Part shown: piece after piece, positions 1,756 through 16,282 of the stretch
Position numbering within the stretch: the first letter of the stretch is position 1
How the letters are laid out: the number at the start of each line of letters is the position of its first letter
Source: Brevibacterium pigmentatum
GTDB lineage: Bacteria > Actinomycetota > Actinomycetes > Actinomycetales > Brevibacteriaceae
Assembly (NCBI RefSeq): GCF_011617465.1
Contig: NZ_CP050153.1
Span: 2,480,001 to 2,544,000, forward strand
DNA: 64,000 bases
Reading direction: 5' to 3'
Notes under the pieces: model-generated
Seen by the model: only the letters and a program-made list of their open reading frames with translations
Database searches by the model: none
Told to the model about the DNA's origin: nothing
Made by a program: the position numbers and the translations under genes

Positions 1756-2763
1756 CTATCTAGAGGTTATCTCTACCGAGTGAGTAACGACTTCTGATGG
1801 AAGAAAGCGCACACCGTTTAGTACCTGGGCAACAATCTCGACCGCGCGCGCCCCGAAATCTGCGGCGCGAAGATTCACTGCCACGACGGATTCATTCGCA
1901 TCGGCGGCATATGCGCTGCTAACAAGCGAACCTATCGCGATATCGGTATTTGGATTTCGTCCGGATTTCGTGATCTCAACAAGTGCACGTTGGGCAAATC
2001 CCTGTGGACCAAACACAATTCCACCGATCTGAGGGTCGGTGACGATTCTCCGGACGACGGAATGAATCTCATGGTCACTAGCGGTGATCGGTAACGGGTG
2101 CTCACTCGGCCCCACGTCGAATTCATGACAGTAGTCACGATATCCGTCGCACATGTCTTTTGTCGCTGAAGACTGAAACTTTGCATCGCTGCAGACAAGC
2201 GCAATCCGACCGTGACCGCGTTGATGCAGTAGACCGGCAACCTTCGCCGCCGTTCCACGATGGTCCGCTTGGACCGTTGCATCAACTTGCGACTGCTTCG
2301 GGCCCAAAACCCGCCCAGCAGTCACCACTGGTAGATCCGAGTCGATAAATGCCGCTAGCGCCGGATCATCGCCAATCGGGTCGACGACGATGACCGCGTC
2401 CACCTGGGGTAAGGCCCCGGCAGTCGTGCTCGGATCTCGAGCGATCAGAAGCAGATCGCAGTCGATTTGGGCCGCTGCAGCCGTCGCACCGTGTGCGAAT
2501 TCCATAAAGTAGCCGAAGCTGCGTACCTGCAGGGGGATGTAGAGCCCGATCGCATTCGACCGTCCGCTCCGGAGCCCTCGGGCGATTCGATTTCCCCTAT
2601 ACCCGAGTTCTTTCGCAGCTTGCTGCACTCGATCTCTCGTCGCAGCTGACATCCGGCCGCGACCAGCCAGCGCGTCGGAGACGGTGGTTTTGGAGAGACC
2701 CAGGTGGGTCGCGAGTCCCACTAGCGTCGGGCGCGGCGGTCCGGTTCTATCGCCTCGGGGCAT
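1756..2763 (-). CDS. LacI-family transcriptional regulator
   Basis: 335-aa DNA-binding regulator. Residues 9-60 form the LacI helix-turn-helix plus hinge helix (T-L-V-G-L-A-T-H-L-G-L-S-K-T-T-V-S-D-A-L-type motif, then R-G-L-R-S-G-R-S-N-A-I-G), followed by a periplasmic-binding-protein-like ligand domain ending in V-T-H-S-V-E-I. The frame stays open well upstream, but HTH homology and typical family length favour Met at 2763; Met at 2796 is a near alternative. It is divergent from the symporter/amidohydrolase genes, and CG-centred palindromes lie between them, so it probably controls those genes. The ligand is unknown; an amine or its acetyl derivative would fit the context. Confidence 0.9.
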   Translation of the reverse strand: MPRGDRTGPPRPTLVGLATHLGLSKTTVSDALAGRGRMSAATRDRVQQAAKELGYRGNRIARGLRSGRSNAIGLYIPLQVRSFGYFMEFAHGATAAAAQIDCDLLLIARDPSTTAGALPQVDAVIVVDPIGDDPALAAFIDSDLPVVTAGRVLGPKQSQVDATVQADHRGTAAKVAGLLHQRGHGRIALVCSDAKFQSSATKDMCDGYRDYCHEFDVGPSEHPLPITASDHEIHSVVRRIVTDPQIGGIVFGPQGFAQRALVEITKSGRNPNTDIAIGSLVSSAYAADANESVVAVNLRAADFGARAVEIVAQVLNGVRFLPSEVVTHSVEITSR

Positions 2764-2854
2764 GGAAATGTCGTCGTTGTCTCTCGTGGTGAGCATTAGC
2801 ACCCGCTGGGGAGTAGTCCATGTGATCAACTTACATCGACTTTCAGATGCAACC

Positions 2855-2905
2855 TTGACTTTGGGTGTGATGTAGGTAACGTTTGAGCCATGCCGGAACG
2901 TTCCG
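2855..2905 (+). promoter_or_regulatory. Symporter promoter with candidate LacI operators
   Basis: TTGACT (2855-2860) and TAACGT (2877-2882) with 16-bp spacing make a plausible sigma-70-type promoter. Two AACGTT cores 19 bp apart overlap it: one at 2878-2883 on the -10 box, and one within the perfect palindrome CGGAACGTTCCG at 2894-2905. Central CG palindromes are typical LacI-family operators. Having the second in the 5' leader supports the downstream translation start at 2956. Confidence 0.5.
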
Positions 2906-2955
2906 TCACTGTTGATAAGCGTCGGCAACTCCATGTTTCTCGGAAGGGTCCCTTC

Positions 2956-3177
2956 ATGAACTTCGACATTCGGCCGCCAACCCGCATTGCACGAACCGCC
3001 ATAGTTTGGGTCGTAATCATCGACTTCGCACTCCTCCTGTTTCCACCGCTGCATTGGAGCCTGGCTAGCCTCAATCCAGCCTATGCCCTGATCTCCCTCG
3101 TGCTTTCGAGCGCAATCGTCACCGCATCGTTGCCTCTTATCAGTCACATCAATCGCAGAGCGGAAGGTGAAGCATGA
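2956..3177 (+). CDS. Small two-helix membrane partner of symporter
   Basis: 73-aa protein with two hydrophobic segments (about residues 12-32 and 41-62) and a basic end. GGAAGG eight bases before the ATG at 2956 selects this start over the ATG at 2890, which would place the candidate operator inside the coding sequence. The last four bases overlap the symporter start (ATGA), so the two are translationally coupled. Short two-TM proteins of this kind (DUF485/DUF3311-like) commonly precede sodium:solute symporters. I could not assign the exact family. Its role is probably assembly or stability of the transporter. Confidence 0.75.
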   Translation: MNFDIRPPTRIARTAIVWVVIIDFALLLFPPLHWSLASLNPAYALISLVLSSAIVTASLPLISHINRRAEGEA

Positions 3178-4688
3178 ATATCCTCATCGGCTACGGTGGC
3201 GTCCTGGTCCTGTTCTTGCTCATCGTTTTCGTCCTCGAGCGAAGCAGAAGGGCAAAGGCGACGACTAACTTCAGCGAGTACGCCACCGCTGGGCGCTCGT
3301 TCGGCTCGTTCTATTCCACAATGGCCTTCGTCAACACCTGGCTGCCTGGCACAATCTTCATTTCGTTCGCAGGATTGGCCGCGTCATCCGGTTTGGTCGG
3401 GTACTACTTCGTTCCCTACTCACTCATTGCCGTGCTGCTGATGTTCTTCCTCGCCAAGCCTGTCCACATGTGGGGAAAGAAATTCGATCTGCGGACCCAA
3501 GCCGACCTTCTCGGCTTCCGATATGGGTCCAATTCCGTAAGATTCACCGCCGCAGTAATCGGGATTGTCGCTTCCCTTCCTTGGGTGGTGCTCGGCATGC
3601 AATCGCTGACCTACGTGTTCTCCTTCCTCTCCTTCGGATTGGTTCCCGCAACAGTAGCCGTCTACATAGGCATCGCAGTGATCATCGTCAGGCAGATCTG
3701 GACGGTAAGATTCGGCGCCCGAGGCCTTGTGGTCAGCGACATGGTTCAAGGAATCGTCGCCTATGGAATCGGCACGGTGCTTGCTGTAGGCCTCATCATC
3801 TGGCTGGCGGCCCACGATCACGGCGTCTCGGAGGTAGACCCTTCGTTCTTCTCTCTGCCCGATCCCGGCAGTGACCTCGGTGGCCTCTACTTCTTTTGCA
3901 TCGTCCTCACCGGCGGACTGGGCGCCTGGAGTTGGCCCGACATCTTCATCCGATTGTTCACCTCGAAGAGCACAACGGTCATCAGAAAGTCTGCGGTCCA
4001 AGCGGCTCCGATCATCTTCTTTTTCGGAACAGCAGTCACCATCGCGGCAATTTTGGCCTCGACACTCCCGGGAGTCGCCGAATCCAGCGACCTGGTGTGG
4101 CTAATCGCCGCGGAAAATGGCGGTCCCATCATCTTGACCCTGGCCGGCCTCTGCGTCATCGCAGGAACGATGGGAAATGTCGGCGGCAACCTTCAGGCGC
4201 TGGGCACCCAAACAGCAAACGACATCGTCGGTGTCGTTCGGAGGAAGCGGATCACCTCTGCGTTAGTCGGCAAGATCTCAGTCGCGGTCCTGTGCGCAGT
4301 CTCCGCAATCTTCGCGATCGCCACCGCCGAAGTCTCGAATGGTCTTATCCGTCTGGCACTCCTATCCTACGAAGGCATTGTGCAACTGGCTCCCACTCTG
4401 TTTCTAGGCGTGTTCTGGAAGCGCGGTACCCCAGCAGCTGCAGTGTCCGCAATGGTCACCGGATTCGTCACCGCTTCGATCTTGGCCGCGATTTACCCGA
4501 CTTCGATTCCATGGCTCGAAGGCATCACCCCTGGCATCGCTGGCCTGTTCGTCAATGTGGTCGTCTATCTGGCCGTCTCGTTCATTCGGCCGAACCGCAC
4601 TAGCGAAAACGCCCGAATCGACGGAGTCTTCGCTCATCTCAAATCGGACGCAGGCGCTCCACAACCTGTTCGTGAACGGGAGACCTGA
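3174..4688 (+). CDS. Sodium:solute symporter (SSS family)
   Basis: 504-aa polytopic membrane protein with about 13 hydrophobic helices. It has the SSS pattern: an early variable helix, A-T-A-G-R-S-F-G-S-F near residue 40, and repeated G-A/N-G motifs in the sodium-site helices (A-G-T-M-G-N-V-G-G-N-L-Q near residue 330). It starts inside the 2956 gene and is followed 64 bp later by the amidohydrolase. It likely imports an organic solute with Na+. The genes around it suggest a polyamine, acetylpolyamine or related amine, but specificity cannot be read from sequence. Confidence 0.88.
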   Translation: MNILIGYGGVLVLFLLIVFVLERSRRAKATTNFSEYATAGRSFGSFYSTMAFVNTWLPGTIFISFAGLAASSGLVGYYFVPYSLIAVLLMFFLAKPVHMWGKKFDLRTQADLLGFRYGSNSVRFTAAVIGIVASLPWVVLGMQSLTYVFSFLSFGLVPATVAVYIGIAVIIVRQIWTVRFGARGLVVSDMVQGIVAYGIGTVLAVGLIIWLAAHDHGVSEVDPSFFSLPDPGSDLGGLYFFCIVLTGGLGAWSWPDIFIRLFTSKSTTVIRKSAVQAAPIIFFFGTAVTIAAILASTLPGVAESSDLVWLIAAENGGPIILTLAGLCVIAGTMGNVGGNLQALGTQTANDIVGVVRRKRITSALVGKISVAVLCAVSAIFAIATAEVSNGLIRLALLSYEGIVQLAPTLFLGVFWKRGTPAAAVSAMVTGFVTASILAAIYPTSIPWLEGITPGIAGLFVNVVVYLAVSFIRPNRTSENARIDGVFAHLKSDAGAPQPVRERET

Positions 4689-4752
4689 ACGCTCCAGTAT
4701 GTTCGCCGCAGACTAACGTCCAACGCTCAATCACACCGCCGAAAGGAACACC

Positions 4753-5898
4753 ATGGCAACCACCACTCCAGCTGTTCGAAAGACCGGTTACATCTGGCAC
4801 GAGATCTTCGCCTGGCACGACACAGGAACGCGAGCCGGATTCCCCTACCCCACCGAGTACGCCCAGCCCTACCGCACATTTGAGAACTCAGAGTCCAAAT
4901 CTCGTCTCGCTGGCCTGGTGGAAGTCTCGGGCCTCCTTGACCAACTAGTGCGGATCAAAGCCGAACCCGCATCACAAGAAGCCATACTGGCGATACACGA
5001 GGCGGACTACATCAAGCGAATTAAGAAGGAAAGCGCCACGCTCGGAGGCGACGGCGGAGACGGAACTACTCCGTTCGGCCACGGAAGCTATGATATCGCA
5101 CGACTCGCAGCAGGTGGAACGATTGCCGCTACCGATGCAGTGATGCGAGGGGACGTCGACAACGCCTACGCGCTCGTGCGTCCACCCGGACACCATGCCG
5201 AACGCGGGAATGGCATCGGGTTCTGCCTGCTCGCCAATGTGCCGATTGCGATCGAGCACGCGCGTCGCGAATACGGCGTAGAACGCGTGCTCATCGTCGA
5301 CTATGACGTCCACCACGGCAACGGCGCTCAGTCAATATACTGGGACGACCCCAATACAGTAACTCTTTCAATTCATCAGCAGCGCCTCTTCCCTCCGCAA
5401 GGCGGCGAGCTGGAGGAAACCGGCGGAGATGAGGCGCGTGGCAGCTGCATCAACGTCCCGCTTCCCGCGGGCTGCGGGAATCAAGCCTACCTCGAGGCAA
5501 TTGATCGAGTGGTGGCACCAGCCGCCGCAGCGATGAAGCCCGATCTGATCATGGTCTCGAGTGGTTTCGACCCCGGGGTACTCGATCCGCTCGGCCACAT
5601 GACTGTCACATCACAGGGATTTCACGCCATCGCGACGAGACTTGTCGAGATCGCAGACAGCGTGTGCTCGGGACGGGTCGTGTTTTCTCATGAAGGCGGA
5701 TACTCTCCGGTCCAGGTCCCGTTCTGCGGCCTGGCGGTCCTGCAAGCTCTTTCCGGTGCTCAAACCGATGTCGAAGACCCGTTCAAAATCTATGAGGGGC
5801 TTCCCTCTCACGAAATTCAGCCCTGGCAACGAAGCATAATTGATAAGGCCAACTCCTTGGCTGAACATCTCAGTGGCAGGTGGGGCACTCCGGTCTAG
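4753..5898 (+). CDS. Acetylpolyamine amidohydrolase / class II HDAC-like
   Basis: 381-aa zinc hydrolase of the arginase/deacetylase fold, expected to remove acetyl groups from N-acetylated amines in the cytoplasm. Catalytic features are complete: P-P-G-H-H-A with H147/H148, zinc ligands D185 and H187 (D-Y-D-V-H-H-G-N-G) and D273 (S-G-F-D), and the transition-state Tyr317 (H-E-G-G-Y). A GAAAGGA ribosome site precedes the ATG. The gene lies between the symporter and a copper amine oxidase. That context favours an acetylpolyamine substrate over protein lysines; acetoin-utilisation-type enzymes share the fold. Confidence 0.85.
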   Translation: MATTTPAVRKTGYIWHEIFAWHDTGTRAGFPYPTEYAQPYRTFENSESKSRLAGLVEVSGLLDQLVRIKAEPASQEAILAIHEADYIKRIKKESATLGGDGGDGTTPFGHGSYDIARLAAGGTIAATDAVMRGDVDNAYALVRPPGHHAERGNGIGFCLLANVPIAIEHARREYGVERVLIVDYDVHHGNGAQSIYWDDPNTVTLSIHQQRLFPPQGGELEETGGDEARGSCINVPLPAGCGNQAYLEAIDRVVAPAAAAMKPDLIMVSSGFDPGVLDPLGHMTVTSQGFHAIATRLVEIADSVCSGRVVFSHEGGYSPVQVPFCGLAVLQALSGAQTDVEDPFKIYEGLPSHEIQPWQRSIIDKANSLAEHLSGRWGTPV

Positions 5899-5976: not shown

Positions 5977-6003
5977 TTTAAACATTAACAGTAACTATTA
6001 TTG
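5977..6003 (+). promoter_or_regulatory. Shared control motif upstream of amine oxidase
   Basis: TTTAAACATTAACAGTAAC followed by TATTATTG. It matches 24 of 27 bases at 10307-10333 upstream of the APC permease. It sits ~80 bp before the amine oxidase start, in an AT-rich stretch that differs from its surroundings. It is a candidate binding site for the FadR-type GntR regulator encoded between the two sites. Confidence 0.6.
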
Positions 6004-6080
6004 CTTAAGGCTGTTTGGTGGTTTACGGTAGTACCAACCCCGCGTGACTGCGGCCATGCACAAAGAAGTGAGGAAACACC

Positions 6081-8084
6081 ATGAAAACAGTCCCCGACGC
6101 AACACATACCCACGGGAAGCGCATCAGCACCCCTCTTGAAGTTACCCATCCTCTCGACCCTTTGACCGCGACAGAGATCGATCAGGTGCGCGCAGTCCTC
6201 GAGGAGGCAGGCCACCTGGGCAGGGAGGTGCGCGTAGCGTCATTGTTACCCAAAGACCCCCCGAAAGCACTGGTCGCGCAGTGGCAGGTCGGACAGCCGA
6301 TGGAGCGCCGCGCACTCGTCACGCTTCTCAACCGCAGCAGTGGAGAAGCTCACGAGGTCACCATCAATTTGGCCACCTCCCAGGTCGACCTGATCACCCC
6401 GCTGAAAACCGGCGAAGCCCCCTACGGACAACCGCAAATTCTCGAAGAGGAATATACGGGCATAGACGACATCGTCAAGTCATCTCCCGAATGGCAACAG
6501 GCGATGAAGCGCCGCGGCCTCGAAGACCACATCGACACGTGCTACTGCACGCCATTGGCGCCGGGCTATTTTCCCGGACGCGACGACGAAGTCGGGCATC
6601 GTGTAGTGCGATCGCTGACCTATTTAATTCCGAACCCAGGGGACAACCCCTGGGCACACCCTGTCGAAGGCCTGCTTGCCCTGGTCAATCTGACCGAACA
6701 GCGAGTTGTCAGTGTCGAAGACAGGGGCGATGTTCCGGTTCCAATGAAACACGGCAACTATGGGCTCGACGCTCAAGGTCCCGCACGGACGTCTCTCAAA
6801 CCGATTGAGATCTCCCAGCCGGAGGGGCCCAGCTTCTCTGTGAATGGCAACGAAGTTTCATGGGAGGACTGGAACTTCCGAGTAGGGTTCAACGCCAAGG
6901 AGGGACTTGTTCTCAACCTCGTCAGCTTTGCAGATCAGGGCGAGCAGCGCCCCGTCCTCACTCGAGCCAGCATTCCAGAAATGATCGTTCCCTACGGTGA
7001 CACGCACCATACCCGCTACTGGATCAGCTACTTCGACGCCGGGGAATACCTGCTGGGACAGAACGCGAATTCTCTTGAGCTGGGCTGCGACTGCTTGGGC
7101 GTTATTCACTACTTCGATGCATTTGTCGCCGACGGGAACTGCTCCCCTCAGAAGATTCCGCAGGCCGTCTGCATGCACGAAGAGGACTACGGCGTGCAAT
7201 GGCGCCACACCGACCACCGAGGCAGAAGCGAAGTCCGTCGCAGCCGCCGGCTCGTAGTCAGCTACTTCGCGACCGTAGGCAACTACGACTACGGCTTCTT
7301 CTGGTACTTCTACCTCGACGGTTCGATCCAGTTCGAAGCGAAAGCAACCGGCATCGTGTTCGCAGGCGCGAACTATCCCGGCACCAAGGATCCTCACGGA
7401 ACCGAACTGTCACCAGGAATATTCACCCCAATCCACCAGCACATCTTCAGCGCGCGACTCGATGCCGCCATCGACGGTGAAGACAACACCGTTCATCAGA
7501 TCGATCTGCAACCCATTCCCACGGGAGAGGACAACCCCTTTGGAAATGCGTTCACCTGGAACGAACTCCAACTGACTTCGGAGTCAGAAGCGCAGAAGAA
7601 CGCCAAGAATGAAGTGAACCGGGTGTGGGAGGTTCGCAGTTCCCACAGGACCAACCACGTCGGCAAACCCACTGCCTATTGGCTGCATCCAGAGGGCAAA
7701 GCCACTCTTCTGGCACAGCCGGATTCCACAGTGTTCGCGCGAGGCAACTTCGCAACCAAACACCTGTGGGTCACTCAATACGCAGAAGACGAGCTGTATC
7801 CCGCCGGAGACTATCCGAATCAGCATGAGGGATGGGCTGGCCTGCCGTCCTGGACCAAAGCCGATCGCAGTCTCGATAAAGAAGACATCGTACTCTGGCA
7901 CAATTTCGGCTTCACCCACATTCCTCGCACTGAGGATTGGCCGGTGATGCCTGTTGACTACTCCGGATTCTGGTTCAAACCGCACGGCTTCCTCGATGAA
8001 AATCCAACGATGGACCTTCCCTCGACCGTTGAGTCACGGAGGTCGGACGACTCCGCGGAACAGTCGTGCTGCTCCAACGACTAG
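6081..8084 (+). CDS. Copper-containing primary amine oxidase
   Basis: 667-aa quinoprotein oxidising R-CH2-NH2 to aldehyde, NH3 and H2O2. Tyr402 in N-Y-D-Y is the residue self-processed to topaquinone. D319 in Y-F-D-A-G-E-Y is the likely catalytic base. H452 and H454 (H-Q-H) plus H613 (F-T-H-I) are the copper ligands. The length matches bacterial and actinobacterial members. No signal peptide is visible, so a cytoplasmic location is likely. A GTGAGGAAA ribosome site lies before the ATG. Expected substrates are mono- or polyamines released by the upstream amidohydrolase; tyramine or phenethylamine are alternatives. The C-terminal tail is Cys/Ser-rich. Confidence 0.95.
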   Translation: MKTVPDATHTHGKRISTPLEVTHPLDPLTATEIDQVRAVLEEAGHLGREVRVASLLPKDPPKALVAQWQVGQPMERRALVTLLNRSSGEAHEVTINLATSQVDLITPLKTGEAPYGQPQILEEEYTGIDDIVKSSPEWQQAMKRRGLEDHIDTCYCTPLAPGYFPGRDDEVGHRVVRSLTYLIPNPGDNPWAHPVEGLLALVNLTEQRVVSVEDRGDVPVPMKHGNYGLDAQGPARTSLKPIEISQPEGPSFSVNGNEVSWEDWNFRVGFNAKEGLVLNLVSFADQGEQRPVLTRASIPEMIVPYGDTHHTRYWISYFDAGEYLLGQNANSLELGCDCLGVIHYFDAFVADGNCSPQKIPQAVCMHEEDYGVQWRHTDHRGRSEVRRSRRLVVSYFATVGNYDYGFFWYFYLDGSIQFEAKATGIVFAGANYPGTKDPHGTELSPGIFTPIHQHIFSARLDAAIDGEDNTVHQIDLQPIPTGEDNPFGNAFTWNELQLTSESEAQKNAKNEVNRVWEVRSSHRTNHVGKPTAYWLHPEGKATLLAQPDSTVFARGNFATKHLWVTQYAEDELYPAGDYPNQHEGWAGLPSWTKADRSLDKEDIVLWHNFGFTHIPRTEDWPVMPVDYSGFWFKPHGFLDENPTMDLPSTVESRRSDDSAEQSCCSND

Positions 8085-8136
8085 CACCCGGACCGATTCC
8101 TGGCCGTCGACCATGACTACGCTCCTTGAGGGAACA

Positions 8137-8676
8137 ATGGTGGCGTCATCTGGTGCCTGCCTCGCGGGGGCAGTCACGGCCCGAAATCTGCGAGCGATAG
8201 TTCCGTCTCTAATAATGTTCGTGTCGATGTTCGATACTGTTCTCTGGCACCAGATACCACCGGCAGTGTGGTCAGGTCTGCTTCTCGTTGCTTCCTTTGT
8301 CATCATTTCGGAGCTGCGCGCGGTTCGCATCACGAACCCGATTGCGAAGACTCATCCTGAGGCGACACCACACTCCCCCGACGCTCGCCAGGAGCGTCGC
8401 CGGCTGCTTGTCATGATTCCGACCTACGTCACGATGGCTTGGCTGGTGCTCGTCCATTCTCACGGCGACAGCAATATTCACACTGCCACCGGGCATGCAC
8501 ATCATGCCGGGCCTGGACTTGCACCGATCCTCACGGTTGCGTGGCTGCTTGCAACAATTTCAACCATTCAAGCGATCGCTTCAGCGCGTCAGCACCAGTT
8601 CTGGTCAGCCGTCGAATCGGCAGCGATGGCCGCCATGCTCGCGAGCATGCTCATCCCGTTCCTCGGGGTGTGGTGA
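8137..8676 (+). CDS. His-rich membrane protein, unknown function
   Basis: 179-aa protein (203 if a GTG-independent upstream in-frame ATG at 8113 is used, 187 aa). The 8137 start is preferred because GAGGG lies five bases upstream. It has four or five hydrophobic helices and a central loop with H-S-H-G-D, a second H-T, then G-H-A-H-H-A-G-P-G. Clustered His near helices suggests metal binding. Its place directly after the copper amine oxidase suggests copper supply or handling, which is inference only. I recognise no named family. It is followed 20 bp later by the gntR gene. Confidence 0.65.
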   Translation: MVASSGACLAGAVTARNLRAIVPSLIMFVSMFDTVLWHQIPPAVWSGLLLVASFVIISELRAVRITNPIAKTHPEATPHSPDARQERRRLLVMIPTYVTMAWLVLVHSHGDSNIHTATGHAHHAGPGLAPILTVAWLLATISTIQAIASARQHQFWSAVESAAMAAMLASMLIPFLGVW

Positions 8677-8696
8677 CCACGCAGAACAGGAAAAGA

Positions 8697-9548
8697 ATGA
8701 GCCTCGGTTCGGGACTACGGTCAAACTTCACTGACGCTGGATATGCTGACACCATGGGTGAAGACAACACAGGCGCGCCGAACATGGTCTCTCCCCGATC
8801 TCTCGACATGATGTTGCAGGTCGGGACCAACTTTCCTGACGATTCCATGAGTCTTGCAGAACAAATTATGCATCGCTTCGAAGCCGCACTCAGCATAGGC
8901 ATCCTCAGCCGCGGAGACCGTCTTCCTCCCGAGTCCGATCTGGCCGAACATCTTGGAGTCTCTCCGCTGACCCTCCGCCATGGTTTGCACATGCTGCGCC
9001 AGAGAGGCCTGGTCGCAACCCGGCGCGGACGAGGCGGCGGGAGCTATATCAGCGGCCAGGTCATCGACCAGAACGAGAACACCGAACTGCGGTTGCAGCA
9101 GATCGACACGGACGGGCTTCGCGATCTTTTCGATCTGGCGGCCAGCGCGGGCCGCGCAGCGGCACGACTCGGCGCGATGCGCACGGACGCGAGCGAAGTG
9201 GCCGGAATGCGAGCATGGAACGAACATTTCCTCAAGGAGACAACCAATGCGGGCCTACGGCGGGCAGACAGTCGATTCCACATCGAGCTCGGCGTCCTCG
9301 CGCAGTCGCCGCAGCTGACTTCGCTACTCGTGCGGGTGCAGTCAGAACTCGCCCCGATGACTTGGTGGGAAAAACAGATCGCCGAGCGCAAATCCACCGC
9401 CTACGACGAACACAACAGCATTATTGATGCAATCGCCTCGGGCAATCATGAGGAAGCCGAGTCACTTACCACCAAACACATCGAGAAGGAACAGGTGTAT
9501 GCGATCGAACATCACCTACGCCTCCTGATGACGGAGAAAGAATTGTGA
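8697..9548 (+). CDS. GntR-family regulator, FadR/FCD-type
   Basis: 283-aa transcription factor. A winged helix-turn-helix lies at about residues 50-115 (S-L-A-E-Q-I-M-H-R-F, G-D-R-L-P-P-E-S-D-L-A-E-H-L-G-V-S), followed by an all-helical FCD ligand domain (R-A-D-S-R-F-H, D-E-H-N-S-I-I-D-A-I, E-A-E-S-L-T-T-K-H-I-E). AGGA six bases before ATG 8697 supports this start; ATG 8754 is possible. The stop overlaps the following Cache-protein start (GTGA), so the two are coupled. It probably controls the amine oxidase and permease through the motifs at 5977 and 10307. Confidence 0.88.
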   Translation: MSLGSGLRSNFTDAGYADTMGEDNTGAPNMVSPRSLDMMLQVGTNFPDDSMSLAEQIMHRFEAALSIGILSRGDRLPPESDLAEHLGVSPLTLRHGLHMLRQRGLVATRRGRGGGSYISGQVIDQNENTELRLQQIDTDGLRDLFDLAASAGRAAARLGAMRTDASEVAGMRAWNEHFLKETTNAGLRRADSRFHIELGVLAQSPQLTSLLVRVQSELAPMTWWEKQIAERKSTAYDEHNSIIDAIASGNHEEAESLTTKHIEKEQVYAIEHHLRLLMTEKEL

Positions 9549-10243
9549 GATCAGAGCGGAATCATAAATTTCTCGCCGACACAGCAGACACCATCGCCGA
9601 GCGAGTCGACTCAGTGTTCGCGTCGCTGGAAGCGCTCCGCGACGCTGCGCTACCCATCTTCGATGCGCCTCGGGTCAGACACGAAGATCTTGCGGTGCTC
9701 GAACCGAGTGTCGCTGACATCATTGGGGACCACGATGGCCTTCTCACTGGGGCAGGCGTTGCGGTCTCGCCTGGGGCGCTGTCGAACACCTCGGCATGGA
9801 TGCAATCCTGGCATGTCTCGGCCTCCGGTCTTCGATTCACTCGTCACAGTCTCAATCCGTCGTCCGTTGACTTCTACAACTACACAGAAATGCCTTGGTA
9901 CCAGCAGCCACGAGCGACACGAGAGGCCTATATCTCGGGCCCCTATATGGACTTCGGCGGAACCGACTCACGGATCATCACCGCCGCCCTGCCCGTGGAC
10001 AGCTGGAACGACAGCACAAGCGTGGTGGCTGCGGATCTGTCTCTGCCCAGTTTCGAACGCATCCTGCTGAGCACGATTCACACGTTTGATCCTGAAACCG
10101 CGCTCATCTCCCCCAGCGGCCGAGTCATCGCCACCAATTCCGCCTCCATTGCCGCCGCTGGCAAGACCACGCGAGATCCAAAATCCAGAGTTCGGATTCC
10201 TGCGCTGAGAGTGCAATGCTCGTGGGAACTGTGCTCCTTCTGA
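9545..10243 (+). CDS. Cache-domain small-molecule sensor protein
   Basis: 232 aa starting at a GTG that overlaps the gntR stop. Residues ~85-200 resemble a dCache ligand pocket: Y-N-Y-T-E-M-P-W-Y-Q-Q-P, then Y-I-S-G-P-Y-M-D-F-G-G, then I-I-T-A-A-L-P-V, and later T-A-L-I-S-P-S-G-R-V-I-A-T-N. There is no transmembrane helix, signal peptide or output domain, so it may act in the cytoplasm, perhaps with the coupled GntR protein. The final 30 residues look less conserved; a late frameshift is possible but not shown. Confidence 0.72.
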   Translation: MRSERNHKFLADTADTIAERVDSVFASLEALRDAALPIFDAPRVRHEDLAVLEPSVADIIGDHDGLLTGAGVAVSPGALSNTSAWMQSWHVSASGLRFTRHSLNPSSVDFYNYTEMPWYQQPRATREAYISGPYMDFGGTDSRIITAALPVDSWNDSTSVVAADLSLPSFERILLSTIHTFDPETALISPSGRVIATNSASIAAAGKTTRDPKSRVRIPALRVQCSWELCSF

Positions 10244-10306
10244 CCCACTGACCGCGCAGGCACAACATTGCCACCGAGAATAGTGGTGCGAGAACATCCG
10301 CGTGAG

Positions 10307-10341
10307 TTTAAACATTAATAGTAACGACTATTGAATAGTCG
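10307..10341 (+). promoter_or_regulatory. Shared control motif and 17-bp palindrome before APC permease
   Basis: TTTAAACATTAATAGTAAC then GACTATTG matches the site at 5977 (24 of 27 positions). It runs into the perfect palindrome CGACTATT-G-AATAGTCG at 10325-10341. The permease ATG is 77 bp downstream. A palindrome joined to a shared direct motif suggests an operator plus promoter element of the amine regulon. Confidence 0.6.
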
Positions 10342-10417
10342 TTCGCGCCGCACTATTCTGAACTCACTGAACCATTCGCTCGGCAGTCGCTGCCTCACAA
10401 CACAAGGACGTGTTTCC

Positions 10418-11848
10418 ATGACTGGTCAACGAAACGTCGAACTGGAAAAGACATTGGGCGTAGCGTCAATCGTCCTCTTCGGCCTCGCCTACATGGGTCC
10501 CCTAATCATCATCGGGATGTTCGGGATCATCGCTAACGCCAGCCAAGGCGCCGCGGCAGGGTCCATGTTCATCGCAACCGTGGCCATCCTCTTCACAGCA
10601 CTCAGCTATGCACGTATGGCCCGCCACTACCCGATGTCCGGCTCTGGTTACACCTACGTCCGCAAGACCATCGGCCCGAAATCGGGCTTCATGGTCGGAT
10701 GGTGTCTCCTCCTGGACTATGTTTTCATCCCGCTCGTCATCTGGCTGGTTGGAGCGGAGTACCTCTACGCTCAGTTCCCAGAAATACCTAAGGCCGTCTG
10801 GCTACTCATCTTCGTTGCCGTCACCACAGCGATCAATCTCGTCGGGATCAAAGTGGCCGACCGTGCCAACATGATCGTCATCAGTTTTCAAGTCGTCATC
10901 CTGGCGCTCTACTTCATTCTCTCTCTGACCAGCATCATCAACGACGGCGGCGCCAGTCGGCTGATCGATCCAGAGCCGTTCATCGGTGTCCAGCAGGAGC
11001 TCGGTCCGATTGCTAGCGGTGCCGCCGTCGCAGCGTATGTGTTCCTCGGCTACGACGCCGTCACGACACTTTCCGAAGAGACAAAAGACGCCGCCAAGAA
11101 CATTCCGCGCGGAATCGTGCTCGTAGCACTCGTCGGCGGAGCCATCTTCGTCGTCATGGCATTCCTGATGGCCCTCATCCTCCCTGGAGGCCAGCTAGAG
11201 AATGCTGAAGCGGCCGGATCTCAGATCGCACTGACGATCGGCGGACAAGTCTTCGCAGCATTCTTCCTCGCTGCCCTTGTCGCCCAGCAGTTCAATGCCG
11301 GAATCGCCGCACAGGCAAGTTCGGCCCGGCTCCTGTTCGCTATGGGTCGAGACGGCATCTTCCCACGATCGTTCTTCGGCTACGTCTCCAGAAAGTTCCG
11401 CACGCCCAGCCTCAATATCATTCTCTGCGGCGTCATCGGACTCGGCGCGGTCTTCCTCTCGCTCCAGACTTCCACTTCGTTCATCAACTTCGGAGCTTTC
11501 GTCGGATTCACGATGGTCAATGTCGCGGTAATCGCCTACTACGTCCGCCACCGCGCCGAGAGGCTAAACCGCTTCCTCTACATTGTGCTCCCGGCCATCG
11601 GTGCAATCGTCGACCTCTACCTTCTCGTCAATCTCGACAATCTCGCGAAGCTGGTAGGCGGCTCGTGGCTTCTACTGGGTCTGATCTATCTCGCCGTCCT
11701 CACGCGTGGCTTTACTCGAAAAGCACCCGAACTCGGTGCCAACACCACCGCCGAGTGGCCGTCGCCCGCCGAGTCCAACAGCGGCGAAGAAGAGAAGTCC
11801 ACCAAGGTCAGCCCTGAACCTTCCGCCCCTGCAACAGACGTCAACTGA
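10418..11848 (+). CDS. APC-family amine/amino-acid permease
   Basis: 476-aa membrane protein with 12 hydrophobic helices and the APC signature early on (V-L-F-G-L-A-Y-M-G-P, then S-Y-A-R-M-A-R-H-Y-P-M-S-G-S-G-Y-T-Y). The ATG at 10418 is chosen because AAGGA lies upstream and it matches the family N-terminus; an in-frame TTG at 10331 is inside the regulatory motif. The polar C-terminal tail is Ser/Glu-rich. It resembles PuuP-type putrescine or ethanolamine importers and lies 34 bp before the aldehyde dehydrogenase gene. The substrate is inferred to be an amine. Confidence 0.88.
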   Translation: MTGQRNVELEKTLGVASIVLFGLAYMGPLIIIGMFGIIANASQGAAAGSMFIATVAILFTALSYARMARHYPMSGSGYTYVRKTIGPKSGFMVGWCLLLDYVFIPLVIWLVGAEYLYAQFPEIPKAVWLLIFVAVTTAINLVGIKVADRANMIVISFQVVILALYFILSLTSIINDGGASRLIDPEPFIGVQQELGPIASGAAVAAYVFLGYDAVTTLSEETKDAAKNIPRGIVLVALVGGAIFVVMAFLMALILPGGQLENAEAAGSQIALTIGGQVFAAFFLAALVAQQFNAGIAAQASSARLLFAMGRDGIFPRSFFGYVSRKFRTPSLNIILCGVIGLGAVFLSLQTSTSFINFGAFVGFTMVNVAVIAYYVRHRAERLNRFLYIVLPAIGAIVDLYLLVNLDNLAKLVGGSWLLLGLIYLAVLTRGFTRKAPELGANTTAEWPSPAESNSGEEEKSTKVSPEPSAPATDVN

Positions 11849-11882: not shown

Positions 11883-13304
11883 ATGAGCAGTTTCGACCGC
11901 TTCTACATCAACGGAGACTGGGTTCCTGCCGGTTCAGCTCACGAGCGCCTTCCGGTGCTCAATCCCACCACGGAGGAGGCAATCGCTGAAGTCGCCCTGG
12001 CCTCCAAAGATGACATCGACCGCGCAGTCGACGCTGCGCAGCGGGCACTGCCAAGCTGGTCGTCAACAGAACCGAAAAAGCGAGCCCAGTATCTGCACGC
12101 GATCGCCGACGCAATTGAGCAGAACGTTGACGGCATCGCCGCAGTCCTGACCGAAGATGTCGGAGTGCCCACCAAGTTTGCTCAAGATGTGCAAGTCGGT
12201 TGGACCATCCAATATTTCAGGGACGCGGCAAATGCTCTCTCAGACATCGAATTCGAATCCGCGTATGGAGATTCGGCCATTGTCAGGCGGGAACCTGTCG
12301 GGGTCGTCGCGGCAATCACTCCCTGGAACTTCCCGCTCATGCAGTCGGCAGCAAAAGTTGCTCCGGCACTGGCCGCCGGATGCACCGTTGTACTCAAACC
12401 ATCCGAAGTAGCGCCTCTCAGCCTATTCTCTTTGGCCGAGATCGCCTCCGAGGTCGGGTTGCCGGCGGGAGTTCTCAACATCGCCACCGGGTATGGGCCC
12501 GAGATTGGAGAGCATCTCGTGTGCCACCCGGGTGTCAACGCCGTGTCATTCACCGGATCAACTCGCGCAGGAACCAGGATCGCCGCACTTGCCGCAGCTG
12601 ATGTGAAACGGGTAACGCTAGAACTCGGAGGCAAATCTGCCGGTGTTGTACTTCCCGGAGCCGACATCGAACAAGCCGCCCGAGCAACGCTCCTCGATTG
12701 TTACCTGAATTCAGGGCAGAAATGTGTTGCCCAGACCCGACTCCTAGTGCCGCGGTCGCAACTCGAAGCAGCCGAATCAACAACGAAGGCAGTGGCGCAG
12801 AAACTCACTGTCGGCGATCCCGCGGACCCTTCGGTCGACGTCGGACCCGTTGTCTCAGCTGCTCAGCTGGCTCGCGTCCGTGACCATATCATTCGAGCAG
12901 AAGAATCCGGTGCACAGCTGATCGTCGGTGGTGCGGACTCGCCAGCCAACCTCGGCCGCGGGTACTTCGTCCGCCCGACCGTCTTCAGCTCGGTAACAAC
13001 CGACATGCCCCTCGCTCAAGAAGAGGTGTTCGGCCCGGTGCTTGCCATACTTCCCTATGACACCGTTGACGAAGCGATCGAAATTGCAAACGACTCCGAG
13101 TACGGACTGGGCGGTGGAGTGTGGGCCAAGACACGCGATGAGGGTATCGCCATCGCCCGAAAGATCCGTACGGGCCAAGTTGCCATCAACGGTGCAATCC
13201 CGACCCCCGACCTCCCGTTTGGAGGATTCAAGAAGTCAGGGTACGGCAGGGAAGGCGGAGCCTACGCAGTTAACGAGTTCTTGGAAATTAAAACCATATA
13301 CTAA
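11883..13304 (+). CDS. NAD(P)-dependent aldehyde dehydrogenase
   Basis: 473-aa ALDH-superfamily enzyme oxidising aldehydes to acids. N149 (T-P-W-N-F), the Rossmann motif F-T-G-S-T-R-A-G (~223-230), general base E247 (L-E-L-G-G-K) and nucleophile C281 (S-G-Q-K-C) are all present. The ATG follows GAAAGGA. With the amine oxidase it would complete conversion of an amine to a carboxylate; 4-aminobutanal or phenylacetaldehyde-type substrates are plausible. It is the last gene of the module and ends just before an IS remnant. Confidence 0.93.
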   Translation: MSSFDRFYINGDWVPAGSAHERLPVLNPTTEEAIAEVALASKDDIDRAVDAAQRALPSWSSTEPKKRAQYLHAIADAIEQNVDGIAAVLTEDVGVPTKFAQDVQVGWTIQYFRDAANALSDIEFESAYGDSAIVRREPVGVVAAITPWNFPLMQSAAKVAPALAAGCTVVLKPSEVAPLSLFSLAEIASEVGLPAGVLNIATGYGPEIGEHLVCHPGVNAVSFTGSTRAGTRIAALAAADVKRVTLELGGKSAGVVLPGADIEQAARATLLDCYLNSGQKCVAQTRLLVPRSQLEAAESTTKAVAQKLTVGDPADPSVDVGPVVSAAQLARVRDHIIRAEESGAQLIVGGADSPANLGRGYFVRPTVFSSVTTDMPLAQEEVFGPVLAILPYDTVDEAIEIANDSEYGLGGGVWAKTRDEGIAIARKIRTGQVAINGAIPTPDLPFGGFKKSGYGREGGAYAVNEFLEIKTIY

Positions 13305-13332: not shown

Positions 13333-13746
13333 TGTCAAGCCCCGGGTTTCGTAGCGGCTCCTTTTCTTGGTTTCCTAAGCAGCCGCCAGTTCTGTCGTGG
13401 ACTGGTTGATCCATTCGGAATGGACCTCGAACGGTGGTCGGTACCCGATCCCAGAGTGCAGTCGGGTCTGGTTGTACCAAGCCACCCACTTCGACGTCTC
13501 CGCCATCACCTCAATCAACCCCGACCACACCTTCCGGTCGATAAGCTCGGCCTTGTAGACCGAGTTCAGCGCCTCCGCCATTGCGTTGTCATACGAGTCC
13601 CCAGGCGACCCCACAGTTGCCACGACCTCTGACTCCGCCAGGGTCTCGCCACAGCGAATCGACCGGAATTGCACCCCGCGATCCGAGTGATGCGCCAGCC
13701 CGGAGGCGCCCCAATCGTCATCACTGTATCCCATAGCGGTACTCAC
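13333..13746 (-). pseudogene. IS3-family transposase C-terminal remnant
   Basis: ~120 aa of an OrfB-type integrase core: H-H-S-D-R-G-V-Q-F, then G-S-P-G-D-S-Y-D-N-A-M-A-E-A (the catalytic Glu region), then Y-N-Q-T-R-L-H-S-G-I-G-Y. The first DDE Asp and all upstream sequence are absent, so it is inactive. The IS end probably starts near TGTCAAGCCCC at 13333. It is only distantly related to the intact element at 17636. Bases 13747-13862 hold nothing I can name. Confidence 0.85.
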
Positions 13747-13862: not shown

Positions 13863-15473
13863 TCATGATTCAGAGGAAATCAAACAGTTATAACCGCCAA
13901 ACACTGACGAACCAACAATCCTCAAATTGATAACAGGACCAAAGACGTGGTCGAAATATACCGTTTTCACAGTATTGGATTCCCAAACAGGAAAGGATAA
14001 GACTGCAGTCGGCATAGTCTGCTGCAATGGATGCTTAAATCTGTGCTGCGGGGAAGACAGTCCGACCCTTTGAATTGATCCGTCCGCGTTCACGGCTACT
14101 GTCTCGCCATGCACTTCAGCACCATGCAACTTAGGACCGTGCCAAGTCAATTCCAGTTGCGTGGACCCTTCTCCCCGTACACCAACCACCGTCACCAACG
14201 GCTCAGGATCACACACCGGGCGAGCCTCAAGAGCAACCCCCAGCTGATCAGATGCCCTACCTTCAACTAAGTGAACTCGAGGATGTAGCGCGGTACCGTC
14301 GGAATCCTGATGCCGTGCATGCTTCCCGATCAGTTCAGGCAGAAAGCGTTGAGAACCTTCTTTTCCAACCGGCTCATACATAAACGGTTCAAAGCTAACG
14401 TCCAGAACATTCATCGTTCGTCTAGAATCGCCAGCGATCCAGTCACGAAGCAAAGCATTGATATGGGAATCGCCGAATGAATACCCGACGACCACGAGGT
14501 GGTTCGACCTGCGCAATGCAACGCGAGCAGCATAGTTCAGCTCAAGAGTCGGCCCATCGGTACCTAGTTTGTCACGGTCTCCGACTACAATCCAGGGCAA
14601 GGACCTCGATTCGTTTTCAAGATCCTGTGATGATACGACGTTCAGCGCTTTCGGCATCGTAGTCAAATACGAACCCGCAACTTGCTCTATCTCACGCCAG
14701 TCCAAAGACCCATGCAGTTTCAACAAATTTAGAACTCGGTCCTCGGCAGGAAAACTCAACTCCTCGCCGGGAGTCCAGGTATCGATACCGCGATTCACCT
14801 TGATCTTATCGAGAGCAGCAGCCTCTACTGTGAGATCGTAATTCAGAGTAATTACGTCAAGCCCACCGGTCTGTGATCGAGCCAGATCGATGATCGGTTC
14901 CAGATACTCAACGTTGCCGTGCTCGTAAAGTATCTTAGCTAGCTCACGCAAAACAAATCGTTCAGCACCCCGAAAAGAATCTCGAAGGTCGGGCTTTAGT
15001 TCCGAAGCAGCGATCTGCGCGATCGAATCACTAATTGACCGATGGGTGGCAATAGAAAACCTATCTAACGCTTCGGCGATTGAAGCCACCAATTGCTTAG
15101 TTTCTCGAAGTTTAAATCGCGATCCCTTGAACTCGTTAAACGCTGTTAACCAATTTCCAACAAACGGCGCAACCTCGTGATCGTCACGTACTTGAAGCAG
15201 ACGCAATGAAGATATAAGGGTCTCAATGTTCACAGCAAGCTGCGGATCGCGTCCGCGTAAACCCTGGTAACCAGCCATGGCGCCATAGACTGCATTTAAG
15301 ACTCTCGTCCACTCGCTAAGTTCCCAAGGGTCGCTCCCCGAGTTCGCCCTTGCCAATATCTGAGAAGCAAGTTGCGAAGTTACGGGTAAACCTGCATCTA
15401 CAGATGCACCTGCTCCGAGCAAAACGGCAACTTTCCCCGAATCATTCGATTCGACGCCAGTCTCTTGCCACAT
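13863..15473 (-). CDS. SIR2-domain protein, probable NAD-hydrolysing defence effector
   Basis: 536 aa. The N-terminal ~340 residues form a SIR2-like NAD-binding fold: L-L-G-A-G-A-S (18-24), T-L-N-Y-D (209-213), L-H-G-S with H254, and V-V-G-Y-S-F-G-D-S-H-I (328-338). The C-terminal ~190 residues match nothing I recognise. SIR2 NADases act in several anti-phage abortive-infection systems (Thoeris ThsA, DSR, SIR2-HerA). No partner such as HerA, TIR or prokaryotic Argonaute is adjacent. The base composition is clearly AT-richer than the core, and the gene sits in a cluster of decayed defence-like genes. The defence role is inferred. Confidence 0.78.
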   Translation of the reverse strand: MWQETGVESNDSGKVAVLLGAGASVDAGLPVTSQLASQILARANSGSDPWELSEWTRVLNAVYGAMAGYQGLRGRDPQLAVNIETLISSLRLLQVRDDHEVAPFVGNWLTAFNEFKGSRFKLRETKQLVASIAEALDRFSIATHRSISDSIAQIAASELKPDLRDSFRGAERFVLRELAKILYEHGNVEYLEPIIDLARSQTGGLDVITLNYDLTVEAAALDKIKVNRGIDTWTPGEELSFPAEDRVLNLLKLHGSLDWREIEQVAGSYLTTMPKALNVVSSQDLENESRSLPWIVVGDRDKLGTDGPTLELNYAARVALRRSNHLVVVGYSFGDSHINALLRDWIAGDSRRTMNVLDVSFEPFMYEPVGKEGSQRFLPELIGKHARHQDSDGTALHPRVHLVEGRASDQLGVALEARPVCDPEPLVTVVGVRGEGSTQLELTWHGPKLHGAEVHGETVAVNADGSIQRVGLSSPQHRFKHPLQQTMPTAVLSFPVWESNTVKTVYFDHVFGPVINLRIVGSSVFGGYNCLISSES

Positions 15474-15616
15474 CGTGATGTCCTAACGCTTAGTAAATCA
15501 ACTCAATACTTCACTGCTCTTCCCGTTTCGAGAATCATCCACTTCTTCGAATACGATAAAGCAAAGCCAGTTCAAGGGCCGACTAGAGACTTCACCCCTG
15601 ACTCCCAAATACCAAC

Positions 15617-16282
15617 TCAACCTATGACGTAGCTCGAGGAGACCTTATAGTCACCGGGCTTTTCACTAAGTTGGCCATCGATTGTTCGCTCCCACCGAAG
15701 CCCATTAGTGTCAGTGAACGTGATCCCAATGCCTATCGGTCCGGCTCGCCATCCCCCTTCTACCCACTCTGAGCTCCCGTCGTCGTTCTGCTCTAGAGAC
15801 TTGACGACCCCATCCTGGTTGGGCAGATTCCAAGACAAATCTATGCTCTTCACCTCGGCACGCTGTGAGTTGATAAATGCACTCATTCCAGAATGACGTT
15901 CGGGGGAACCCATGGGCGGCAACGTTCCGCCGATAATGTCGTTCTGATTATTCGGTGCGATGAAACTAAGCACCGCATTATAAACAGGTTGATTACTGGC
16001 GTTGAACACCCGCACCTCGAACGAATCCAAGACGTCCTTCGTTAGCCACGCCGAAATTTGCGAAGCTTGTTCGCGTCGTTTCTCCCGGCCGCGCTCGGTT
16101 GCTTCAGACTCAAGCGCATCCACTTGATCCTGAGCAGACTTCATCTGCTGGAACGCGTATGTAGCTGCGAAAGCAGCTGCACAAAACGCGAGGAACGTCG
16201 ATACAGCCGAAATCCAATCTGGTACAGACCCATATTCCCATGCCGATGTATCGACGTTCAAAAACGCGTAATGAAAGATCAT
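15617..16282 (-). CDS. Membrane-anchored coiled-coil protein, unknown function
   Basis: 221 aa. One hydrophobic helix at about residues 24-45 (W-I-S-A-V-S-T-F-L-A-F-C-A-A-A-F-A-A) is followed by a charged helical stretch rich in Gln/Glu/Arg (50-75) and a C-terminal β-rich domain (~80-221). The start lies 6 bp past the stop of the helicase remnant, so they probably share a transcript; the SIR2 gene follows after ~140 bp. Small membrane proteins of this layout occur in phage-defence loci, but I do not recognise the family. Confidence 0.6.
   Translation of the reverse strand: MIFHYAFLNVDTSAWEYGSVPDWISAVSTFLAFCAAAFAATYAFQQMKSAQDQVDALESEATERGREKRREQASQISAWLTKDVLDSFEVRVFNASNQPVYNAVLSFIAPNNQNDIIGGTLPPMGSPERHSGMSAFINSQRAEVKSIDLSWNLPNQDGVVKSLEQNDDGSSEWVEGGWRAGPIGIGITFTDTNGLRWERTIDGQLSEKPGDYKVSSSYVIG

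What the first reader, a model, noticed from the sequence alone, without database searches (positions are those of the whole stretch)
5977..10341. Near-identical 27-bp motif ahead of the amine oxidase and the permease
TTTAAACATTAAyAGTAAC plus a partly conserved xAxTATTG block occurs at 5977-6003 and 10307-10333, each ~80-110 bp before a start codon, and nowhere else that I found. The GntR and Cache genes lie between the two sites. This predicts a two-promoter regulon under one regulator.
Basis: seen in the sequence. Interest (0 to 1): 0.62.

Follow-up and report, generated by a model that had tools for sequence, protein, structure and literature searches.

The report
Shared switch site for amine breakdown
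A bacterium carries the same short DNA switch in front of its amine-degrading enzyme genes and its amine-uptake genes, and the switch is probably read by a regulator encoded between them that works together with an unusual amine-sensing partner protein inside the cell.

Summary
The two sites (5977 and 10307) match over 24 of 27 bases and are the only matches to the 19-bp core, within 3 mismatches, in the 3.9-Mb genome. They belong to a 31-bp element that ends in the promoter -35 box, with a -10-like hexamer exactly 17 bp further on. Every site lies beside a GntR-Cache gene pair and precedes amine- or aldehyde-oxidising or uptake genes. Three amine oxidase orthologues without the GntR lack the element. 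The fixed spacing to -35 suggests an activator. The Cache protein folds like amine chemoreceptors, and the GntR-Cache pair is in print as an intracellular amine-sensor operon (PMC10104139). I found no operator or target genes in print. New here: a candidate operator, its promoter geometry, its targets, two natural GntR-Cache fusions, and evidence that the regulator's own FCD ligand site is eroded in about 40% of pairs.

The parts
5977..6007 (+). site 1: 31-bp element TTTAAACATTAACAGTAACTATTATTGCTTA upstream of the amine oxidase operon
6001..6006 (+). predicted -35 hexamer TTGCTT inside site 1
   Evidence: 17-bp spacing to a -10-like hexamer shared with the other sites
6024..6029 (+). predicted -10 hexamer TACGGT
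   Evidence: too weak for the sigma-70 consensus scan
6081..8084 (+). copper amine oxidase, phenylethylamine-oxidase type
   Evidence: Pfam Cu_amine_oxid 5.8e-152; NCBIfam primary-amine oxidase above cut-off; nearest solved relative phenylethylamine oxidase 1av4/1rjo
8113..8676 (+). small His-rich membrane-type protein between amine oxidase and GntR; an ORF occupies the same place in B. daeguense
8754..9548 (+).
   Evidence: Pfam GntR 2.9e-12, FCD 2e-14; start by alignment with orthologue
9545..10243 (+). Cache protein without its own DNA-binding domain, overlaps the GntR stop by 4 nt; predicted intracellular amine sensor
10307..10337 (+). site 2: 31-bp element TTTAAACATTAATAGTAACGACTATTGAATA upstream of the permease operon
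10331..10336 (+). predicted -35 hexamer TTGAAT inside site 2
10354..10359 (+). predicted -10 hexamer TATTCT
10418..11848 (+). APC-superfamily permease (predicted amine or amino acid uptake)
   Evidence: Pfam AA_permease 7.1e-39
11883..13304 (+). aldehyde dehydrogenase, 34 bp after the permease (predicted same operon)
   Evidence: Pfam Aldedh 9.6e-164 (run from 11880); start read

Best explanation
The two 31-bp elements are operators of the GntR/FCD regulator encoded between them, placed directly against the -35 boxes of two promoters. P1 drives amine oxidase - membrane protein - GntR - Cache, so the regulator controls itself. P2 drives permease - aldehyde dehydrogenase. The Cache protein, made from a gene overlapping gntR, is the cytosolic amine sensor and reports to GntR, probably by direct contact. 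With amine present the GntR-Cache complex bound at about -36 to -60 recruits RNA polymerase (class II-type activation), switching on uptake, deamination and aldehyde oxidation together. Shown by sequence: the sites, their conservation, their fixed promoter spacing, their co-occurrence with GntR-Cache, the gene families, the natural fusions. Inferred: operon structure, DNA binding, GntR-Cache contact, amine as ligand, activation rather than repression.
For: Only two sites in the genome. Model R1 at E<=1 hits 3 of 57 genus genomes, 5 sites, all in this locus type. A five-site matrix over 83 loci (1.116 Mb), 80 of them without a training site, gives above the control maximum of 19.5 only the training sites, two opposite-strand (dyad) readings of them, and two new sites, R. 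koreensis L074 (31.5) and G227 L108 (22.5), both just 3' of Cache and on its strand; both regulators fall in the window's GntR clade. Spacing from the element's TTG to the best -10 is 17 bp, with the most TATAAT matches of the spacings 13-23 tested, and TAnnnT in all four window and B. daeguense promoters. The genes behind the sites are copper amine oxidase, permease and ALDH, ALDH + FAD oxidase + EutH ethanolamine-type transporter in S22, FAD amine oxidase + MFS transporter in R. koreensis, ALDH + FAD oxidase in G227. A GntR neighbours Cache in all 83 loci examined, two of them as one fused protein. The Cache model (pLDDT 88.5) matches the putrescine, histamine, choline, betaine and ethanolamine/serinol sensors above the amino-acid receptors PctC/PctA.
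Against: No binding or expression data. Dyad symmetry, expected for a GntR homodimer, is only suggestive: column-permutation p = 0.15 over 7 sites. Arthrobacter loci of the same GntR clade lack this exact element. L109-L112 pairs have reversed gene order and no match. FCD regulators are mostly known as repressors (recalled). The top Foldseek hit (3lic) has no stated ligand, and by sequence the best PDB hit is the amino-acid receptor PctA. The S22 Cache has Arg where the window has Met, so ligand class may differ among motif-bearing pairs.
Confidence: 0.62

Rival explanations
1. Same regulator and sites, but repression: GntR bound at the -35 region blocks RNA polymerase and the amine-bound Cache protein releases it.
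For: The element overlaps the -35 hexamer; FCD GntR proteins are commonly repressors (recalled). Autoregulation in the same operon suits a repressor too.
Against: The exact register to -35 is kept in six of seven promoters whose flanks are otherwise unlike, which suits contact with polymerase better than simple blocking; the -10 hexamers are poor (TACGGT, TAGCCT), as in activator-dependent promoters.
Confidence: 0.22
2. The element is read by another, unlinked regulator, and the nearness of GntR-Cache is coincidental.
For: No binding data; the core element is not found in most GntR-Cache loci.
Against: Element and this GntR type occur together in 3 of 3 genus genomes and are absent together from three genomes that keep the oxidase; the new hits in other genera again lie at a GntR-Cache pair (only GntR-Cache loci were scanned there, but whole-genome scans of 396 and 394 genomes found no strong site elsewhere). 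The LacI gene at 1756-3147 (-) is not in the conserved cassette.
Confidence: 0.12
3. The similarity is a recent copy of one promoter onto the other, or a generic strong-promoter sequence, with no regulator-specific meaning.
For: The element includes the -35 box.
Against: Flanks are dissimilar within the genome (4/31 and 8/31) and the element persists in other species and genera; no other promoter of 57 Brevibacterium genomes gave a match to the model at E<=1.
Confidence: 0.03

Closest known systems
[quoted passage not shown] passages and sections 5, 6, 10, 25 read)
   Same: Gene pair, lineage, cytosolic Cache sensor of the amine-binding fold; the window pair lies in an amine-catabolism cluster.
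   Different: In what I read, the paper notes the operon only; it gives no operator, target genes, mode of action or fusion protein. Residue-level match to its amine motif could not be fully checked here.
FCD-type GntR regulators (nearest solved relatives: a PdhR-type repressor 9jpj, 2di3; NanR 6on4)
   Same: Winged HTH plus FCD domain; the four FCD metal-site residues D/H/H/H (site recalled) are kept in the window protein.
   Different: A separate sensor protein is encoded with it; in 36 of 83 pairs the FCD site is mostly gone.
Amine chemoreceptor sensor domains McpU (putrescine), TlpQ (histamine), PctD (choline), PacA (betaine)
   Same: Fold and conserved aromatic and aspartate pocket positions.
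   Different: Those are extracytoplasmic domains of membrane receptors; this one is a stand-alone soluble protein.
Arthrobacter globiformis phenylethylamine oxidase (AGAO)
   Same: Nearest solved relative of the amine oxidase (organism name recalled).
   Different: The substrate here is unknown; the same genome has two other copper amine oxidases (46% and 44%) without the element.

Membership tests
GntR/FCD transcription regulators | N-terminal GntR winged HTH and C-terminal FCD domain | tested here: met
   Pfam GntR 2.9e-12 and FCD 2e-14, both above cut-off
GntR/FCD transcription regulators | FCD metal/ligand site Asp-x3-His...His...His (recalled) | tested here: met
   D172, H176, H220, H242 of the 8754-start protein; D/E-H-H-H complete in 35 of 83 relatives
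GntR/FCD transcription regulators | binds an inverted-repeat operator | tested here: inconclusive
   core CNTTA-N4-TAANG has 4-5 of 5 arm pairs in 5 of 7 sites, 3 and 2 in the others; whole-element symmetry p 0.15
dCache_1AM amine sensors | dCache-type fold nearest to amine receptors | tested here: met
   AF2 pLDDT 88.5; Foldseek top ten includes McpU, TlpQ, CqsR, PctD, PacA; PctC at rank 18, PctA at rank 39
dCache_1AM amine sensors | conserved pocket residues equivalent to PctD W155, F188, Y189, D235 | tested here: inconclusive
   W118 and Y119 (aromatic in 38 of 38), D164 (38 of 38) and W89 (W in 35 of 38) conserved. Equivalence of W118/Y119/D164 goes through the PctA alignment and the paper; that of W89 is indirect and one search failed to recover PctD.
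dCache_1AM amine sensors | no Arg at the amino-acid carboxylate position (PctA R126) | tested here: met
   Met116 in the window, Met in B. daeguense; but Arg in S22 and in 13 of 38 relatives
dCache_1AM amine sensors | binds amines | not testable with these tools
   needs thermal shift or ITC
class II-type activator-dependent promoter | regulator site abutting -35 at fixed spacing | tested here: met
   TTG in the same register in 6 of 7 promoters; best -10 spacing 17
class II-type activator-dependent promoter | transcription depends on the regulator | not testable with these tools
   needs expression data

The most novel reading that the evidence does not exclude
GntR/FCD plus cytosolic amine-sensing Cache is a widespread split transcription regulator of Actinobacteria in which sensing has moved from the FCD domain to a partner protein. 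It acts as a class II activator, and the 31-bp element is its first defined operator, tying the pair to amine uptake and oxidation.
Probability: 0.45. Interest if true: 0.72.

Novelty: new variant of a known kind. Interest (0 to 1): 0.52.

Why it matters
The intracellular GntR-Cache pair has been noted in many actinobacterial genomes, but I found no target genes, operator or mode of action in print. A defined operator with two promoters, an oxidase whose substrate can be assayed and a sensor of an amine-binding fold makes the system testable with one gel shift and one reporter. It would also show how a membrane-receptor sensor domain was taken into the cytosol to serve a GntR regulator, and how Brevibacterium, which matters in cheese ripening, may control biogenic amine breakdown. 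A paper on cheese Brevibacterium, including S22, reported no homologues of the Pseudomonas histamine regulators HinB and HinJ (PMC6467879, passages read).

Tried and rejected
Promoter duplication was rejected: flanks do not match, and the element is conserved in other species. A generic copper amine oxidase promoter element was rejected: the other two copper amine oxidases of the genome lack it, as do the three 65-66% orthologues without GntR.

The paralogous Brevibacterium GntR-Cache pairs (L023-L026, L029, L130) have a conserved permease-promoter sequence CTTAAACATCTARARTTGATAGTATTC with partial resemblance (scores up to 18.3, below the control maximum 19.5). It is not claimed as the same operator. 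In 8 of 10 Arthrobacter-group loci TGCAAAGATTGAAGGTAATAG lies upstream of GntR (4 mismatches or fewer, none elsewhere in those loci). It resembles the core (AAnATTnAnnGTAA) but only one copy scored (17.0, below the control maximum), so it is a lead only.

The whole-element dyad (12 of 15 arm pairs in site 1 by eye) was not significant across sites (p 0.15). Searches of 396 order and 394 class genomes with model R1 gave no further strong sites; the weak hits (E 0.03-0.5) lie in small, probably AT-rich genomes, and those genome-wide runs used stricter filters. The search for related loci with GntR alone found nothing. The PctD residue map was sought without success. One search used a pattern with one N too many, so its zero result is void. 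The first regular expression allowed no mismatches for one element and was redone.
Full report
OBSERVATION. The two copies are present as described. Within three mismatches the 19-mer occurs twice in the window (shuffle expectation 0.00) and twice in the 3.91-Mb genome.

GENES. In order: copper amine oxidase (6081-8084), a small His-rich membrane-type ORF (8113-8676), GntR/FCD (8754-9548), Cache (9545-10243, 4-nt overlap with GntR), APC permease (10418-11848), aldehyde dehydrogenase (11883-13304). The nearest solved relative of the oxidase is phenylethylamine oxidase. With these spacings I read two operons, one behind each site.

CONSERVATION. In 57 genus genomes the 19-mer (3 mismatches or fewer) hits 3: this genome, G008 and G041. 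G008 has two sites 4,339 bp apart (here 4,330), in front of its amine oxidase (77%) and its permease (74%), with GntR (58%) and Cache (48%) between. S22 has one site, between Cache and an aldehyde dehydrogenase. GntR relatives at E<=1e-20 occur in 13 of 57 genomes, but at 40% identity or more only in these three. The orthologous oxidases of G007, G050 and G051 (65-66%) have no GntR match and no element upstream. A sequence-only model of seven sites (R1) finds at E<=1 exactly these five sites in 57 genomes; all five were in its training set, so this call tests specificity, not discovery.

INDEPENDENT HITS. A matrix from the five Brevibacterium sites was run over 83 loci carrying a Cache relative (1.116 Mb), with reversed sequence as control. 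The control maximum was 19.5. Above it were the training sites, the opposite-strand readings of two of them (window site 1 and S22), and two new sites: R. koreensis (L074 6677, 31.5) and G227 (L108 6874, 22.5). Both lie just after the Cache gene on its strand. Both GntRs fall in the same clade as the window's. Behind them are an FAD amine oxidase and an MFS transporter, and an aldehyde dehydrogenase with an FAD oxidase; S22 has aldehyde dehydrogenase, FAD oxidase and a EutH-type transporter. All target sets thus fit amine or amino-alcohol oxidation.

PROMOTER GEOMETRY. In six of seven sites the element contains TTG in the same register. Counting TATAAT matches at spacings of 13-23 bp, 17 bp scores highest (22 of 42; next best 18 at 20 bp), and all four window and B. 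daeguense promoters read TAnnnT there. The G227 copy has ATG instead of TTG. A sigma-70 consensus scan did not list these promoters, so they are weak by that standard. A site whose distance to -35 does not vary, before weak promoters, fits an activator better than a repressor, but this is inference.

THE REGULATOR PAIR. All 83 Cache loci have a GntR gene next to Cache on the same strand: 79 before it (two of them one fused ORF, L113 and L160), 4 after it in one genus (for L110 and L112 the order rests on the ORF and domain table). Of the 83, 6 (L022-L026, L029) were chosen by GntR similarity, 3 are the motif genomes, and 74 were chosen by Cache similarity alone; 60 of these are among the 76 places. 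Some loci are the same organism from two collections. The other 16 places were not fetched, though several (own, S22, G056, G021, G027, G020) are covered by other loci. In 69 pairs measured on ORFs, 21 overlap by 4 nt and 12 by 8 nt. Both fused ORFs carry GntR, FCD and Cache-type domains (in L113 the Cache-type matches are just below the Pfam cut-offs). The FCD site residues (D/E-H-H-H) are complete in 35 of 83 and reduced to one or none in 36, while the Cache pocket Asp and aromatics are kept in 38 of 38 aligned. The window's pair keeps both.

THE SENSOR. The Cache model (17-sequence alignment, pLDDT 88.5) matches 3lic first, then McpU-putrescine (TM 0.78), MkcA, TlpQ-histamine, CqsR-serinol, PctD-choline and PacA-betaine; PctC comes at rank 18 and PctA at rank 39. 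By sequence the best hit is PctA, so sequence and structure rankings differ. The Arg that holds the carboxylate of amino acids in PctA is Met here. [quoted passage not shown] Full residue-by-residue membership could not be verified.

VERDICT. A real, conserved operator-like element marks two promoters of an amine uptake and oxidation cassette and very probably belongs to the GntR-Cache pair inside it. The pair is known as a genomic observation; the operator, regulon and geometry are, as far as my searches show, not described. Binding, ligand and sign of regulation remain to be tested.

Noticed in passing
window 3174-5898: An SSS-family transporter and a histone-deacetylase/acetylpolyamine-amidohydrolase-like gene lie directly upstream on the same strand; in B. 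daeguense a replicative DNA helicase-like ORF (my reading of its sequence) is there instead, so this pair is not part of the conserved cassette.
   Followed up: partly
window 1756-3147 (-): LacI-family regulator divergent from the transporter; the ORF carries about 135 extra residues before the HTH, so the first possible start is probably too early.
   Followed up: no
window 13375-13746 (-): Integrase-core (rve_3) transposase fragment right after the cassette.
   Followed up: partly
window 13863-16282 (-): SIR2_2-domain protein (536 aa) and a 221-aa protein without Pfam hit, next to the transposase remnant; SIR2 proteins occur in anti-phage systems (recalled), so this may be a defence locus.
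   Followed up: partly
L113 6149-7618; L160 6714-8204 (-): Single ORFs fusing GntR, FCD and Cache-type domains: natural fusions of the two-gene pair.
   Followed up: yes
L109-L112: One genus has the pair in reversed order (Cache before GntR); upstream of Cache in the two loci read (L109, L111) is AACTTC-N6-GAAGTT, a candidate operator of that group.
   Followed up: partly
L023-L026, L029, L130: Second GntR-Cache paralogue group in Brevibacterium with a strongly conserved permease promoter sequence (CTTAAACATCTARARTTGATAGTATTC).
   Followed up: partly
L021 10088-14286 (Brevibacterium sp. S22): The S22 pair precedes aldehyde dehydrogenase, an FAD oxidase and a EutH-type transporter, suggesting ethanolamine or another amino alcohol as substrate.
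   Followed up: partly
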